Shown here piece after piece: positions 11,079 to 49,076 of a stretch of DNA of 64,000 nucleotides. Each line of letters starts with the position of its first letter. Positions within the stretch are counted from its first letter, which is position 1. The notes beneath the pieces were generated by a model that saw only the letters and a program-made list of their open reading frames with translations, did no database searches and was not told the DNA's origin. A program made the position numbers and the translations under genes. Source of the DNA: Gaiellales bacterium (GTDB lineage Bacteria > Actinomycetota > Thermoleophilia > Gaiellales > JAICJC01); assembly GCA_036273515.1 (NCBI GenBank), contig DASUHM010000075.1:62001-126000 (forward strand). Reading direction: 5' to 3'.

Positions 11079-11106
11079 GAATAAACGGGGTCAGACCCCT
11101 GTATTC
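11079..11106. repeat. Palindromic repeat GAATA...GGGGTCAGACCCC...TATTC
   Basis: A 28-bp near-palindrome: GAATA at one end, TATTC at the other, and GGGGTCAGACCCC (11087-11099) in the centre. A relative with the same ends but a decayed centre is at 41607-41635. It lies just past the 3' end of the orphan histidine kinase gene. Confidence 0.75.
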
Positions 11107-16881: not shown

Positions 16882-16967
16882 GGGGTCAGACCCCGAACGG
16901 CGGCTGTTGCAAAGTCGTTTCGGAGTTGTGACGGGGACTGTCCCCACCGTACCCGGGGACAGTCCCC
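16882..16967. repeat. Composite palindromic repeat block
   Basis: Three 13-bp palindromes: GGGGTCAGACCCC (16882-16894), GGGGACTGTCCCC (16933-16945) and GGGGACAGTCCCC (16955-16967). The first, with its right flank GAACGGCGGC.GTTGCA, also occurs at 44206 with a single difference. The block lies between convergent genes and abuts the stop codon of the small membrane protein on the other strand (16977-16979). Confidence 0.8.
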
Positions 16968-44205: not shown

Positions 44206-44268
44206 GGGGTCAGACCCCGAACGGCGGCCGTTGCACTTCGGTGACACTTTCGTACGGGGTCTGACCCC
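44206..44268. repeat. Palindromic repeat pair
   Basis: GGGGTCAGACCCC (44206-44218) and its reverse complement GGGGTCTGACCCC (44256-44268). The right flank of the first (GAACGGCGGCCGTTGCA) matches the copy at 16882 with one difference, so the repeated unit extends well beyond the palindrome. Confidence 0.8.
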
Positions 44269-44322: not shown

Positions 44323-44367
44323 GGGGTCAGGCCCCCGGTGGTTTGCCGGCGTGCGGGGTCTGACCCC
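44323..44367. repeat. Palindromic repeat pair next to erm
   Basis: GGGGTCAGGCCCC (44323-44335, one mismatch in the palindrome) and GGGGTCTGACCCC (44355-44367). Both this second palindrome and the one at 44256-44268 continue as GGTCAGGC, and here that flank supplies the stop codon of the erm gene (complement of 44370-44372). Confidence 0.75.
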
Positions 44368-44369
44368 GG

Positions 44370-45143
44370 TCAGGCTGCGAGGCCGAAGAGGGCTACCCAG
44401 TCCCACACGTCCAGGTCGTGCGGGCGGGCGTCGGGCTGCAGGCCCCGGGTGCGGGCGAAGCGCTTCCAGGTGCGCGGCGGCAACGCGAGCGCCCGCCGCA
44501 CCGGGCGCGCGTCGCGGGTGAAGCCGGCCTCGAGGAACGCCCGGTAGCCCGCGGCCTGCTCCACCGGCAGCAGCGCCGGCCGCCGCGGCCGGATCGCGAG
44601 CAGCGCTGCGTCGACCCGGGGCGGCGGGTCGAAGCACGCCGCCGGCAGATGCCGCTCGGCCTGGAGCCGCCACCACGGCTGCCAGCGCAGCGCCAGCAAC
44701 GTCGAGGGCCGCGTCGCCGCCCGCTTGCGTACGAGCCCGTCCTGGACGATCAGGTCGGCCCGGGCGAGCGCGGACGCGGGATCGTCCAGCAGCCGGCGCA
44801 GGGTCGGCGTCGTGATCGCGAACGGCACGTTGCCGACGACGCGGTGGGGCTCGGCCGGCGGCGCCAGGGCCAGGAAGTCCGCCTCGATCACCGTCACCTG
44901 GTCGCCGCCGTAGCGGCGCCGAAGCGAGCCTGCGAGCCCGGGGTCGAGCTCGACGGCGACGACCCGCGCTCCGGCGCTTCGGAGCGGGGCCGTCAGCCGG
45001 CCGAAGCCGGCGCCGATCTCGACCACGAGCTCGCCGTCGCGAACGCCGGCCGAGGCGACGATCTCGGCCGCCAGCCCGGCGCTACGCAGGAAGTGCCGGC
45101 CGTGGCCGGCCTGCGGCCGTGCGCCGCGCCCTCGCGCGGCCAC
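44370..45143 (-). CDS. erm: 23S rRNA (adenine-N6)-methyltransferase, Erm type
   Basis: 257 residues from GTG at 45143. GHGRHFLRSAGLAAEIVASAGV is the Erm/KsgA entry. Motif I is VVEIGAGFGRLTAPL, then VELDPGLAGSLRRRY and VIEADFLAL. Motif IV is GNVPFAITTPTLRRLL and is followed by the Erm-like stretch LIVQDGLVRKRA and CFDPPPRVDAALL. Erm enzymes methylate A2058 of 23S rRNA and give macrolide-lincosamide-streptogramin B resistance. A KsgA-type 16S target is less likely because of the shorter C-terminus. It lies 35 bases after the MFS pump on the same strand. The stop codon comes from a repeat. Confidence 0.82.
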   Translation of the reverse strand: MAARGRGARPQAGHGRHFLRSAGLAAEIVASAGVRDGELVVEIGAGFGRLTAPLRSAGARVVAVELDPGLAGSLRRRYGGDQVTVIEADFLALAPPAEPHRVVGNVPFAITTPTLRRLLDDPASALARADLIVQDGLVRKRAATRPSTLLALRWQPWWRLQAERHLPAACFDPPPRVDAALLAIRPRRPALLPVEQAAGYRAFLEAGFTRDARPVRRALALPPRTWKRFARTRGLQPDARPHDLDVWDWVALFGLAA

Positions 45144-45178
45144 GGAACGTCACCGTGAAGGTACCCATCGCGCCCATC

Positions 45179-46630
45179 CTACTCGGACTCGGTCGCGAGC
45201 TCACCGGCCGGCTCGTGGCCGCCCTGCGCCTGCACGTCGGCACGCAGCACCGAGGCGCCGATCGCCGCCGCGGCGAACGCGAACACCGCGCCGAGCAGGA
45301 AGGCGACGTGATAGCCGCCGACCAGCGCCTCGAGGTGAGCCTCGCCCGACGCGCGCAGGTCGCTCGTGTGCGACGCGGCCACGCTTGTGAGCACGGCCAG
45401 GCCGAGCGCCCCGCCCATCATGAAGGCGGTGTTGACGACGCCCGAGGCCAGGCCGGACTCGGCCGGGTCGACGTCGTTCATCGCGGCCAGGAGCAGCGGA
45501 TTGAACGACATGCCCGCGCCGAACCCGAGCAGCACCATGCTCGGCAGGACGTCTGTGATGTAGCTGCCGCCGACGGGTGCGCGGGCGAACAGCACGAGCC
45601 CGGCTCCGGCCAGCGAGAGGCCGACCCCGAGCGGGATGCGGACGCCGTAGCGCATCACGAGCTTGGCGGAGAGGCCGAGCGAGAACGCGGCCATGATCAG
45701 GTTCGTCGGCAGGTACGCCAGGCCGACCCGCAGCGGGCTGTAGCCGAGGATCAGCTGCAGGTAGAGCGCCGAGAGGAAGAACCAGGCGAACATCCCCGCC
45801 GCCCACAGGATGCCGACCACGTTCGAGGTGGCGACGTTGCGCAGGCGGAACAGGCCGAGCGGCATGAGCGGCGACGCCACCCGCGCCTCGATCACGAGGA
45901 ACACGCCGAGCAGGGCGAGCGACGCGGCCAGCAGGCCGAGCGTCTGATCCGACGTCCAGCCGGTCTGGTTGCCGTTCACGATGGCGTAGACGGCCAGCAT
46001 CAGGGCCGCGGTGACGGTGACCGCGCCGGCGACGTCGAGCTGCGTCTGCGCCTGGCCGCGCCCGGACGGGAGCAGCACGAAGCAGAGGCCGAAGACGGCC
46101 ACGCCCACCGGCAGGTTGACGATGAAGATCCAGTGCCAGTCGAGCACGTCGGTGAGGACGCCGCCGAGCAGCACGCCGACGGTGCCGCCGCCGGCGGCGA
46201 CGAAGCCGAACACCCCCATCGCCTTGGCCCGGTCGCCGGCCTCGGTGAACATGGTCATGATCAGCGACAGCGAGACGGCCGAGACGATCGCGCCGCCGAG
46301 GCCCTGCACCGCCCGCGCGCCGATCAGGACGTGCTGGGAGGTGGCCAGGCCGCACGCAAGCGACGCCAGCGTGAAAAGGGCGATCCCGGACAGGAACAGG
46401 CGGCGGTGGCCGAACAGGTCGCCCAGCCGGCCGCCCAGCAGCAGGAACCCGCCGAACGTCAGCAGGTAGGCGTTCACGACCCACGCGAGCGACGTCTCGG
46501 TGAAGCCGAGATCCTGGCGGATCGACGGCAGGGCGACGTTCACGATGGTCGTGTCGAGCACGATCATGAGGCTGCCCGAGCAGAGCACGATCAGCGCCAG
46601 CCAGCGCCTGTTGCCCTCGACGCCGCTCAT
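45179..46630 (-). CDS. MFS drug exporter, DHA2 family
   Basis: 483 residues from ATG at 46630, overlapping the stop of a 14-residue leader frame (ATGA). About 14 membrane helices are seen. VLDTTIVNVALPSIRQDLGF in TM1 and GGRLGDLFGHRRLFL (motif A) are typical of EmrB/QacA-type proton-driven pumps, and GARAVQGLGGAIVSAVSLSLI follows. The next gene downstream is an Erm methylase, which makes a combined efflux and target-modification operon likely. The substrate may be a macrolide-like antibiotic (inference). Confidence 0.9.
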   Translation of the reverse strand: MSGVEGNRRWLALIVLCSGSLMIVLDTTIVNVALPSIRQDLGFTETSLAWVVNAYLLTFGGFLLLGGRLGDLFGHRRLFLSGIALFTLASLACGLATSQHVLIGARAVQGLGGAIVSAVSLSLIMTMFTEAGDRAKAMGVFGFVAAGGGTVGVLLGGVLTDVLDWHWIFIVNLPVGVAVFGLCFVLLPSGRGQAQTQLDVAGAVTVTAALMLAVYAIVNGNQTGWTSDQTLGLLAASLALLGVFLVIEARVASPLMPLGLFRLRNVATSNVVGILWAAGMFAWFFLSALYLQLILGYSPLRVGLAYLPTNLIMAAFSLGLSAKLVMRYGVRIPLGVGLSLAGAGLVLFARAPVGGSYITDVLPSMVLLGFGAGMSFNPLLLAAMNDVDPAESGLASGVVNTAFMMGGALGLAVLTSVAASHTSDLRASGEAHLEALVGGYHVAFLLGAVFAFAAAAIGASVLRADVQAQGGHEPAGELATESE

Positions 46631-46671
46631 GTCTCCGCTCCGGTGTTGGTGGTGTTGATGTGGTTCTGCAT
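46627..46671 (-). CDS. Putative 14-residue leader peptide
   Basis: ATG at 46671 with a textbook AAGGAG (complement of 46680-46685) 8 bases upstream encodes MQNHINTTNTGAET, and its TGA overlaps the ATG of the MFS gene. The better ribosome site belongs to this short frame, so the pump would be translated by coupling. Translated leaders of this size control many erm and efflux genes by ribosome stalling. Whether this one does is inference. Confidence 0.45.
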   Translation of the reverse strand: MQNHINTTNTGAET

Positions 46672-46688
46672 GGAAGTGGCTCCTTGAA

Positions 46689-46714
46689 GGTCTTCGAGTC
46701 TGTCACTGAAGACC
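46689..46714. promoter_or_regulatory. Inverted repeat upstream of leader-MFS-erm
   Basis: GGTCTTC (46689-46695) and GAAGACC (46708-46714) form a 7-bp inverted repeat with AGT/ACT also mirrored inside. It precedes the leader's ribosome site by a few bases. It could be a repressor operator or the stem of a leader RNA. Confidence 0.4.
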
Positions 46715-46778
46715 GGGCAGGCGGCCGAAACTCATCGAGCGCGCACCGTAGCGATCGGGCCCGCGGCGTTCGCGCAGG

Positions 46779-49001
46779 TCAGGACATGATGGCCGGGGTG
46801 GGCGCCTCGACCTCTTCGTCGAAGACGCCGGTGCCCTCGACGTTCACGCGCGGGAGGACGCGGTCGAGGAACCCGGGCAGGTACCAGCTGCGGCGGCCGA
46901 GCACTTCCATCACGGACGGGACGAGCATGCAGCGCACCACCGTCGCGTCGAGCGCGATCGCGACCGCGAGCCCGATGCCGAACTGCTTCACCACCGGATC
47001 GCCGTTCAGGACGAAGCTCGAGAACACGAACACCATCACGAGCGCCGCCGACGTGATCACGCGACCGGTCCGGGCGAGGCCTTCGACCACCGCCTCGCCG
47101 GCGTCGCCGGTGGCGTGGTAGCGCTCCTGGATCTGGCTGACGAGGAAGACCTCGTAGTCCATCGAGAGGCCGAACAGGATCGCGAACATGAGCAGGGGTG
47201 CGTAGCTCACGATCGGGATCGCGTGGGGCAGGCCGACGAGGCCGATCCCGTGCCCTTCCTGGAAGATGAACGTGACGACGCCGTATGCGGCGCCCACGGA
47301 GAGCAGGTTCATCACCGCGGCCTTGATCGGGATCACCACCGAATGGAACGCGAGCATGAGCACGACGAAGCTCAGCAGCACGACGATCGCGATCATCAGC
47401 GGCAGCTTCGCGCCGATCTTCTCCGCCAGGTCGATGTATCCGGCGGTCTGGCCGCCGACGTACACGGTCAGGCCGGAGCTCGCGACTGCCTTGGGGATGA
47501 CCGTGTCGCGCAGGTTGTTCACCAGGTCCTGGGTCTGGTCGGACGATGGCGACGTCTTCGCGACCACGCTGAACACGGCGCCGGTACCTGACGGATCGAC
47601 CGTGGCGGGCGCGACCGACTGCACGTCGGCGGTCTTCGCGATGGTGTTCTGGAGGCTCGTCAGGCGCGGGTCGGTGGTCGGGTCGCCCCCCGCCTGGGCG
47701 GGCTGCGCCGGTGTCGGGAACTTCACGGCGATCAGGAGCGGCCCGTTCGACCCGGCCCCGAACCCGGTTGCCATCGCGTCGTACGACTGCCGCTGGGTCG
47801 TGGACTTCGGCAACACGCTGTTGTCCTGCTGGCCCAGCCGCAGGTTGATGAGCGGGAACGCCAGCACGAGCAGGAGGACGGTGCTCCCGATCATGTACGG
47901 CCAGGGGTTGCGGCCGACGGCGCGCGCCATCCGCGCCCAGCCGTGCGGCTGGTGGTCGTCGGGGTGGGTGCGGCCGATGTGCACGCGCAGGGAGTTGATG
48001 TGCTCGCCGAGCGCTCCGAGCAGTGCCGGCAGCAGCGTGATCGCCGCGAGCACCGAGACGGCCACGGCGATGGCCGCCGTGTAGCCGAGCGTCGAGACGA
48101 GCGGGATCCCGGCCACGACCAGCGAGCAGAGCGCGATCACGACCGTCACGCCGGCGAACAGGACCGCGCCCCCGGAGGTGGCGGCCGCGCGGGCGATCGA
48201 CTCGTTCATCTCGATCCCGTGGCCGAGCTGGAGCTTGTGCTTCGTGACGATGAACAAGGAGTAGTCGATGCCGACGCCGAGCCCGATCATGGTCGCCAGC
48301 GTCGGCGAGACCGTGGGCACGGCGGTGAGGTGGCTGATCGCGGTGATCAGCGCGAGCGTCGTCAGCAGCCCGAGGATGGCGGTGATGATCGGGAGCAACA
48401 TCGCCGTCACCGTCCCGAAGGCGATCACGAGGATCACGACCGCGGCCGCGATCCCGATCGCCTCGCTGCTCTCGGTCGACGGCCGGGACAGCTTCTGGCC
48501 GACGTAGCCGCCGACGGACGGCTCGAGGCCCGCCTTCGCCGCCGGATCGGCCGCGTCGAGGATGTCCTGGGCGTCCTGGTCCGTCGTGCTGCCCGAGCCG
48601 GTGTTCAGCGTCACCGAGATGTAGGCGACCTTCCGGTCCTTGCTCACGAGCCCCTGGGCGCCCTGGTCGAGCGGGCTGACCACCCTGGTGACGTGGGGCA
48701 CCGCCTTCAGGTTCTTCACGGTCGCGTTGATCGCGCTCGTGCTGGCGGAGTCCCCGATCTGGCCGGAGTGGTCGACGAGCGTGAGCGGGATGCTGCCGTA
48801 GGCCTGCTGGGGCAGCTTCTGCTGCAGCAGGTTGGTGGCGTTCGTCGAGCCCGTCCCCGGCAGCGTCAGGTTGTCGTTCCAGTTCTGGCCGAGCGACGCC
48901 GCCCACAGGTGCAGCCCGACCGCCACCACCAGCCACGTCGCGATCACGTACCAGCGTCGGCGCACGCAAAAGCCGCCGACCTCGTAGAGCGCCCGAGTCA
49001 C
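46779..49001 (-). CDS. MMPL/RND-type transporter
   Basis: About 741 residues from GTG at 49001, with TGAGG 8 bases upstream. One helix (about 15-32) is followed by a large outer loop, then a bundle of five to six helices, a second large loop and a second bundle. This is the 12-helix MMPL layout. GLGVGIDYSLFIVTKH and GLSMDYEVFLVSQIQERY carry the Asp-Tyr pairs expected for the proton relay. Family members move lipids, siderophores or drugs across the membrane. It lies upstream of the MFS/erm operon's reading direction, and palindromes precede its start. Confidence 0.9.
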   Translation of the reverse strand: MTRALYEVGGFCVRRRWYVIATWLVVAVGLHLWAASLGQNWNDNLTLPGTGSTNATNLLQQKLPQQAYGSIPLTLVDHSGQIGDSASTSAINATVKNLKAVPHVTRVVSPLDQGAQGLVSKDRKVAYISVTLNTGSGSTTDQDAQDILDAADPAAKAGLEPSVGGYVGQKLSRPSTESSEAIGIAAAVVILVIAFGTVTAMLLPIITAILGLLTTLALITAISHLTAVPTVSPTLATMIGLGVGIDYSLFIVTKHKLQLGHGIEMNESIARAAATSGGAVLFAGVTVVIALCSLVVAGIPLVSTLGYTAAIAVAVSVLAAITLLPALLGALGEHINSLRVHIGRTHPDDHQPHGWARMARAVGRNPWPYMIGSTVLLLVLAFPLINLRLGQQDNSVLPKSTTQRQSYDAMATGFGAGSNGPLLIAVKFPTPAQPAQAGGDPTTDPRLTSLQNTIAKTADVQSVAPATVDPSGTGAVFSVVAKTSPSSDQTQDLVNNLRDTVIPKAVASSGLTVYVGGQTAGYIDLAEKIGAKLPLMIAIVVLLSFVVLMLAFHSVVIPIKAAVMNLLSVGAAYGVVTFIFQEGHGIGLVGLPHAIPIVSYAPLLMFAILFGLSMDYEVFLVSQIQERYHATGDAGEAVVEGLARTGRVITSAALVMVFVFSSFVLNGDPVVKQFGIGLAVAIALDATVVRCMLVPSVMEVLGRRSWYLPGFLDRVLPRVNVEGTGVFDEEVEAPTPAIMS

Positions 49002-49038
49002 GAGTCGAACCTCAAAGCCGGGCGAGGATACCAAGCAG

Positions 49039-49076
49039 CGGATCGCCCAATTGGGGCGATCCGACACGGTAACCGT
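49039..49076. promoter_or_regulatory. Two palindromes upstream of MMPL gene
   Basis: CGGATCGCCC-AATTG-GGGCGATCCG (49039-49063) has perfect 10-bp arms, and ACGGT-A-ACCGT (49066-49076) is a second perfect palindrome 2 bases on. They lie 38-75 bases upstream of the GTG. They look like operators for a dimeric repressor such as TetR. No such regulator gene is adjacent. Confidence 0.45.

What the first reader, a model, noticed from the sequence alone, without database searches (positions are those of the whole stretch)
44370..46714. Leader peptide, efflux pump and Erm methylase in one likely operon
A 14-residue frame (MQNHINTTNTGAET) with a strong AAGGAG overlaps the MFS start, and an Erm-type gene follows after 35 bases. 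An inverted repeat precedes the leader. This has the form of an inducible macrolide-type resistance operon that joins efflux with ribosome methylation, in an environmental chromosome.
Basis: partly seen in the sequence, partly recalled or inferred. Interest (0 to 1): 0.6.

Follow-up and report, generated by a model that had tools for sequence, protein, structure and literature searches.

The report
Hidden arrest leader inside Erm start
An environmental bacterium's antibiotic-resistance gene (Erm type) appears to be governed by a tiny hidden gene that overlaps its start codon and carries the Arg-X-Arg signal known to jam drug-bound ribosomes; the leader first reported, in front of the neighbouring efflux pump, is probably not the switch.

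Summary
The reported pieces exist (minus strand): a 14-codon ORF, an EmrB-type pump, and an Erm-type methylase 35 bases on. The proposed role of that leader is not supported. It occurs only in this genome and one sister, its amino acids are not conserved, and it sits where other pump orthologs start translation, behind a conserved ECF-like promoter. The pump-Erm adjacency is local too.

A different leader emerged. An ORF at 45168-45082 (MGTFTVTFRGRA...) overlaps the Erm GTG start out of frame. In 34 of 35 Erm orthologs found among 399 genomes of the class, this frame reads Arg-X-Arg exactly at the Erm start. The last Arg is spelt with all six Arg codons (at least 12 codon changes on the tree, no amino-acid change), while the overlapping Erm residue varies. 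The ORF always ends 38-65 nt inside erm (5.5% of 220 control genes end at 35-70), stable RNA begins at the Erm start, and Erm has no Shine-Dalgarno. Arg-X-Arg is a known ketolide/macrolide arrest motif.

Most likely: a drug-sensing leader whose arrest site is the Erm start codon itself, with Erm begun by local restart. Leader and motif are well supported computationally; drug response and restart are inferred. New variant of a known kind.

The parts
45082..45168 (-). Overlapping leader ORF of erm, MGTFTVTFRGRARARRTAAGRPRPALPA* (28 aa); an in-frame ATG also lies at 45177
   Evidence: same frame and motif in 34 of 35 orthologs
45136..45144 (-). Arg-Gly-Arg codons (CGT GGC CGC); the Erm GTG (45143-45141) lies inside CGT-GGC
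44370..45143 (-). Erm-type rRNA methyltransferase, GTG start, 257 aa, no SD core before the GTG
45094..45147 (-). Stretch from the Erm start with excess RNA stability (z -2.61 in this genome)
   Evidence: no covariation found
45176..45181 (-). TAGGAT, -10-like hexamer 7 nt before the leader ATG; overlaps the pump's TAG stop
   Evidence: read; TANNNT 4-9 nt before a leader start in 18 of 34 leaders against 1.3% of control ATG/GTG
45179..46630 (-). DHA2/EmrB-type MFS efflux pump, 483 aa
46627..46671 (-).
46710..46736 (-). Promoter-like element GATGAGTT-N14-GGTCT of the pump
46689..46714 (-). Inverted repeat GGTCTTC...GAAGACC; its first arm overlaps the -10-like box

Best explanation
The Erm gene is controlled by its own overlapping leader peptide, which senses ribosome-bound macrolides or ketolides. 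The mRNA often seems to begin at or near the leader's start codon. Without drug, the ribosome reads through the leader, passes the Erm start out of frame and stops 38-65 nt further on; RNA structure then closes over the Erm GTG, which has no Shine-Dalgarno. With drug, the ribosome arrests at Arg-X-Arg. By analogy with ErmDL and TlrB, X is in the P site and the second Arg in the A site, so the arrest melts that structure and places the Erm GTG across the E and P sites. Erm is then begun there by local restart after the nascent chain is lost. Shown by sequence: the ORF, the motif, its fixed position, the stop, the stability excess, the missing SD. Inferred: drug arrest, restart, induction, and methylation of A2058.
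For: 34 of 35 Erm orthologs among 399 genomes of the class have the overlapping frame with Arg-X-Arg at the Erm start. The last Arg is spelt with six codons: at least 12 codon changes, no amino-acid change, while Erm residue 3 changed at least 11 times. Base +5 and +7 vary together as Arg codons require (p 2.3e-5, relatedness not corrected). Motif plus an open upstream start in 1 of 272 control genes. Leader stop at +38..+65 in 34 of 34 against 5.5% of 220 controls at 35-70. TANNNT close to a leader start in 18 of 34. No SD before the Erm GTG in 34 of 34. Stability excess from -4 to +50, mean z -1.82 against 0.06. The arrangement also occurs in 6 of 28 phylum loci examined, 3 more shifted by two codons. 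The motif is a known arrest motif (PMC8298421 passages; PMC6851288 passages).
Against: No drug experiment. Arg at the third place is common by chance in such genomes (19 of 47 C-GTG control starts). RNAalifold finds no conserved pair, and the GTG is only modestly more paired than control sites (0.82 against 0.67). An arrested ribosome covers the Erm start, so the usual uncovering step does not fit and restart is unproven. Erm starts are predicted; in 6 of 34 loci more than one start was possible. G041 and 18 of the 28 phylum loci lack the arrangement. PMC8298421 reports that the motif is dispensable for arrest with erythromycin.
Confidence: 0.55

Rival explanations
1. The drug-arrested ribosome shifts frame (+1 or -2) at the motif and continues into the Erm frame, making a leader-Erm fusion.
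For: The frame relation is fixed in all 34 leaders, and Erm lacks an SD. Macrolide-induced frameshifting has been reported (recalled; not read here).
Against: No slippery site: the X codon and the next codon vary (X: four codons; last Arg: six codons), and tRNA re-pairing after a shift would be poor. The Erm frame is usually closed just upstream, which the model does not need but which gives no help.
Confidence: 0.08
2. Classical attenuation: arrest only keeps the start-codon structure open, and another ribosome begins Erm at the GTG once the arrested one has left.
For: Stability excess at the start and +X+ motif, as in known erm attenuators (PMC11264731 passages).
Against: The arrested ribosome sits on the start codon, there is no SD to uncover, and the position of GTG inside the motif is fixed in 34 of 34, which this model does not require.
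Confidence: 0.2
3. A drug-independent damper: the overlapping ORF merely lowers Erm translation, and Arg-X-Arg is a by-product of the CGTGGC start context and high GC.
For: Arg is common at that place (19 of 47 controls), and the first Arg is largely dictated by C-GTG.
Against: The last Arg is kept through at least 12 codon changes and the +5/+7 co-variation; the upstream start, the stop and the promoter placement are non-random.
Confidence: 0.12
4. One reading: the 14-residue leader before the pump is the inducible attenuator of a pump-Erm operon.
For: Good SD, ATGA coupling, 35-base gap to erm; frame kept in G002 through a 3-base indel.
Against: Present in 2 of 27 pump orthologs; amino acids not conserved; its ATG lies 38-40 nt behind the promoter motif, where the pump itself starts in the 20 other orthologs with the motif (32-56 nt); erm is next to the pump only here, with two genes between in G002.
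Confidence: 0.05

Closest known systems
ErmDL leader (+X+ class; Arg6-Leu7-Arg8 in PMC8298421, passages)
   Same: Short leader with Arg-X-Arg at codons 6-11, before an Erm gene.
   Different: ErmDL lies upstream of its gene (recalled); here the arrest codons contain the Erm start codon.
TlrB/YxjB leader of Bacillus subtilis (RYR; PMC6851288, abstract and passages)
   Same: Arg-X-Arg leader controlling a 23S rRNA methyltransferase, with a start-region hairpin.
   Different: Nine-residue leader that does not overlap the gene, SD-sequestering hairpin, terminator and RNA polymerase pausing; a different methylase (RlmAII, G748).
Actinobacterial plasmid Erms 36, 46, 55 and the Kocuria and Dietzia Erms
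   Same: Erm family; candidate upstream ORFs ending RFRRF, EFRRF, RIRRF or RDRRA, also Arg-X-Arg-like.
   Different: Those ORFs lie about 100-270 nt upstream and do not overlap the start; these Erms begin with ATG and fall elsewhere in the tree.
Erm(38) (structure 7f8a)
   Same: Best solved-structure match to the family profile, E 6.2e-58, ahead of all KsgA/RsmA entries.
   Different: Distant: NCBI's Erm(38) model gives the window protein 117.6 bits against a cut-off of 800.

Membership tests
Erm 23S rRNA methyltransferase | Scores higher with Erm than with KsgA models | tested here: met
   205.1 against 127.9 bits; five relatives scanned 188-213 against 99-122
Erm 23S rRNA methyltransferase | Reaches NCBI's naming cut-off for the broad Erm model (212 bits) | tested here: not met
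   205.1 bits; so called Erm-type here. A naming threshold rather than a biological trait
Erm 23S rRNA methyltransferase | Lies outside the KsgA branch, with a separate KsgA in the genome | tested here: met
   Tree of 77 rows, KsgA one branch (SH-aLRT 86); G000 KsgA 195.7 bits
Erm 23S rRNA methyltransferase | Methylates A2058 and gives MLS resistance | not testable with these tools
   Needs enzyme assay
Macrolide-inducible +X+ leader attenuator | Translated short leader with Arg/Lys-X-Arg/Lys near its start | tested here: met
   Motif and frame in 34 of 35 orthologs; translation itself not tested
Macrolide-inducible +X+ leader attenuator | Structure that hides the SD or start of the resistance gene | tested here: inconclusive
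   Stability excess at the start, no covariation, no SD present
Macrolide-inducible +X+ leader attenuator | Leader upstream of and separate from the resistance gene | tested here: not met
   Overlaps the Erm start out of frame; hence a variant
Macrolide-inducible +X+ leader attenuator | Drug-dependent arrest and induction | not testable with these tools
   Toeprinting and reporters needed
DHA2 (EmrB-type) MFS efflux pump | Scores over the TIGR00711 cut-off | tested here: met
   243.6 bits, cut-off 230.2
ECF-type sigma promoter of the pump | Two boxes at fixed spacing shared by a regulon, with a known sigma factor | tested here: inconclusive
   Element and recurrence found; sigma factor not identified

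The most novel reading that the evidence does not exclude
A new attenuator architecture: the drug-arrest codons and the resistance gene's start codon are the same nucleotides, on an mRNA that often has no 5' UTR, so that the arrested ribosome itself restarts at the resistance gene and no SD has to be uncovered. It is kept across one bacterial class and recurs elsewhere in its phylum.
Probability: 0.3. Interest if true: 0.8.

Novelty: new variant of a known kind. Interest (0 to 1): 0.62.

Why it matters
It would show that macrolide sensing by Arg-X-Arg leaders is widespread in chromosomes of environmental bacteria far from the clinic, and that it can work without the textbook SD-uncovering switch. 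Leaders that overlap a start codon out of frame are easily missed by gene callers. The arrangement is a compact test of whether an arrested ribosome can restart on the spot.

Tried and rejected
KsgA: rejected. A conserved RNA structure by covariation: none found; only an energy excess. Frameshift: no slippery site. Literature for the promoter motif: the only paper holding GATGAGTT with the other terms had it in Myc-tag primers; the listings showed no match. Literature for an overlapping Erm leader: the listings showed none by title or abstract start; the listed papers were not all read, so this is no proof of novelty.

Cautions on counts. Control genes come from my own crude gene caller on 22 sources (the window and 21 fetched stretches). 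G053, G258 and G214 have two GTGs, both in CGTG: searches use the upstream one, the other. The Erm start was picked by the Arg-X-Arg rule where several starts existed (6 of 34); 28 of 34 have a single candidate. G041 was left out of the 34 and is reported as the miss. The TANNNT count (18 of 34) allows one to four candidate starts per leader; for G000 the script picked another start, and TAGGAT before the ATG is read directly from the sequence. The shifted cases G418, G473 and G737 were read by eye. Shuffle z-scores use 60 shuffles (40 for controls).

Full report
WHAT WAS CHECKED. The finding lies on the minus strand of the window, which is G000:C75:62001-126000 of an unnamed 4.07 Mb draft genome. 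All described pieces are there: the 14-codon ORF at 46671-46627 with AAGGAG at 46685-46680, its TGA overlapping the pump ATG at 46630, the pump 46630-45179, a 35-base gap, the Erm-type gene 45143-44370, and an inverted repeat within 46714-46689. The pump is a DHA2/EmrB transporter (TIGR00711 243.6 bits, cut-off 230.2). The methylase scores 205.1 with NCBI's broad Erm model (cut-off 212) and 127.9 with KsgA (cut-off 171).

THE METHYLASE IS ERM-TYPE. Another gene of the genome scores as KsgA (195.7 KsgA, 116.5 Erm on the stretch scanned). In a 77-row tree the ten KsgA rows form one side of a branch (SH-aLRT 86) without the window protein. The latter sits in a 47-row side (support 89) with relatives of its class and phylum, apart from the plasmid Erms 36, 46, 51, 55, X and the Kocuria and Dietzia Erms (quick method, many open forks). 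The closest solved structure to the family profile is Erm(38). Because some phylum members group with Kocuria and Dietzia Erms, the organism is probably an actinobacterium (inference; its name is not known here).

Of 27 pump orthologs (66-100% identity), 22 carry upstream the element GATGA-TT-N14 followed by GTC. In 20 of these the pump's nearest plausible starts lie 32-56 nt behind it. In G000 and G002 the leader ATG lies there (38 and 40 nt) and the pump start has moved to 79 and 84 nt. The leader exists only in these two genomes. Between them the leader DNA has one 3-base gap and 10 of the 13 residues after Met differ, while the pump start next to it is nearly identical. So the frame is kept, the peptide is not. 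The simplest reading is ATGA translational coupling, not an arrest peptide. The inverted repeat's first arm is the -10-like box of the element, so most of that arm is probably not transcribed.

THE PUMP PROMOTER BELONGS TO A REGULON. Exact GATGAGTT-N14-SGTCT occurs 6 times in the own genome (12 with one mismatch), the reversed pattern 0 times, and in 25 of 61 genomes of the order-level set, control 0 in every genome. Downstream genes in the own genome look, by eye from recalled family features, like DUF899 proteins (three), VOC/glyoxalase proteins, a RibD-like reductase, an SRPBCC protein, an MMPL transporter and the pump; not every site precedes a gene start. This resembles ECF sigma regulons (recalled); the sigma factor was not identified.

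THE PUMP-ERM LINK IS LOCAL. In G002 (Erm 82-83% identical) the same neighbourhood carries a divergent membrane-protein gene and a TetR-like gene between pump and erm. The window sequence joins G002's pump end and its pre-erm sequence near a shared GAGTAG, which fits a deletion here or an insertion there. In the other nine Erm-bearing genomes, the best listed pump relatives and erm lie on different contigs.

THE HIDDEN LEADER. Upstream of the Erm GTG an ORF in another frame starts at 45168, reads MGTFTVTFRGRARARRTAAGRPRPALPA, and ends inside erm at 45082. In the class search, 35 of 399 genomes had an Erm match at E <= 1e-38. In 34 of these 35 the same overlapping frame exists and reads Arg-X-Arg, the first Arg codon CGT holding the first two bases of the Erm GTG. 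The exception is G041, whose Erm starts with ATG and falls elsewhere in the tree. Examples: G002 MGVFTVTFRGRA, G001 MTFCTVTFRGRA, G004 MAFVTVTVRVRR, G057 MPTVIFRGRT, G021 MCMVVFRGRP, G238 (another family of the class) ...MVMVFRGRA. Two leaders would start with GTG (G317, G246).

SELECTION ON THE PEPTIDE. The last Arg is present in 34 of 34 and spelt CGT 12, AGG 8, CGC 6, CGG 4, AGA 2, CGA 2. On a tree made without the first 12 Erm residues this is at least 12 codon changes and no amino-acid change, while the overlapping Erm residue 3 changed at least 11 times among V, G, A, E. When base +5 is A, base +7 is always a purine (10 of 10), as Arg but not Ser requires; when it is C, 5 of 24 (Fisher p 2.3e-5, relatedness not corrected). 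Background is high: 19 of 47 control C-GTG starts also have Arg at that place, so the motif in one genome alone would mean little. Motif plus an open upstream start 10-45 nt before occurs in 1 of 272 control genes. The leader stop falls 38-65 nt after the Erm start in 34 of 34; it falls at 35-70 nt in 5.5% of 220 control genes, whose median is 540 nt.

mRNA FEATURES. TANNNT lies 4-9 nt before a candidate leader start in 18 of 34 (1.3% of ATG/GTG in the same loci), which points to leaderless mRNA; 10 more have an SD-like core. No SD core lies before the Erm GTG in 34 of 34. From -4 to +50 of the Erm start the RNA is more stable than its shuffles (mean z -1.82; 29 of 34 below -1, against 13% of 210 internal windows), while -25 to +20 is not (mean z 0.17). 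There is no covariation support, and the GTG itself is only modestly more paired than control positions.

SPREAD. In the phylum search 85 of 396 genomes matched at 1e-35, many of the weaker ones probably KsgA; the 28 newly fetched loci were examined. Six have the exact arrangement (G411, G425, G432, G532, G507, G644). Three have Arg-X-Arg two codons earlier, still with the GTG in its last Arg codon (G418, G473, G737; by eye). G669 has VRGY. Eighteen lack it. Plasmid Erms 36, 46 and 55 instead have candidate separate Arg-rich ORFs upstream.

MECHANISM. Arg-X-Arg is a known arrest motif: PMC8298421 (passages) describes arrest on Arg6-Leu7-Arg8 of ErmDL with telithromycin or erythromycin, the intact motif being dispensable with erythromycin; PMC6851288 (abstract and passages) places Tyr and the second Arg of RYR in the P and A sites. 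Applied here, the arrested ribosome has the Gly codon in the P site and the Erm GTG across E and P sites, with the start structure melted. Release of a hidden SD cannot be the step, since there is no SD and the start is covered. I therefore favour local restart two bases back after loss of the nascent chain. This step is inference; the rivals are a classical switch, frameshift, and a drug-independent damper.

NOVELTY. PMC11264731 (passages) describes the usual upstream leader and hairpins; PMC8274638 (passages) describes a second leader for ermB, not an overlap with the erm start. No listing showed an overlapping arrangement; the library lacks most subscription papers. I rate it a new variant of a known kind.

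Noticed in passing
46710-46736 (-) and 11 further sites in the own genome: A conserved two-box element GATGAGTT-N14-SGTCT, found in 25 of 61 relatives with no hit of the reversed control, precedes genes that look like DUF899, VOC, RibD-like, SRPBCC, MMPL and MFS genes; it looks like an ECF sigma regulon whose sigma factor is unknown.
   Followed up: partly
44206-44218, 44256-44268, 44355-44367, 11087-11099, 16882-16894: Five copies of the palindrome GGGGTCWGACCCC (0 expected in shuffles), three of them just downstream of erm.
   Followed up: no
window 45170-45181; L036 5210-5230 and 6760-6790: Pump and erm are joined near a shared GAGTAG, where G002 has a membrane-protein/TetR-like gene pair: a deletion here or an insertion there.
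   Followed up: partly
L137, L140, L141, L143, L144 upstream of erm: Known actinobacterial plasmid Erms have candidate short ORFs ending RFRRF, EFRRF, RIRRF or RDRRA about 100-270 nt before the gene.
   Followed up: no
46779-49067 (-): An MMPL-family transporter lies just upstream of the pump on the same strand and is kept in G002, so two transporters and the Erm gene stand in a row.
   Followed up: no
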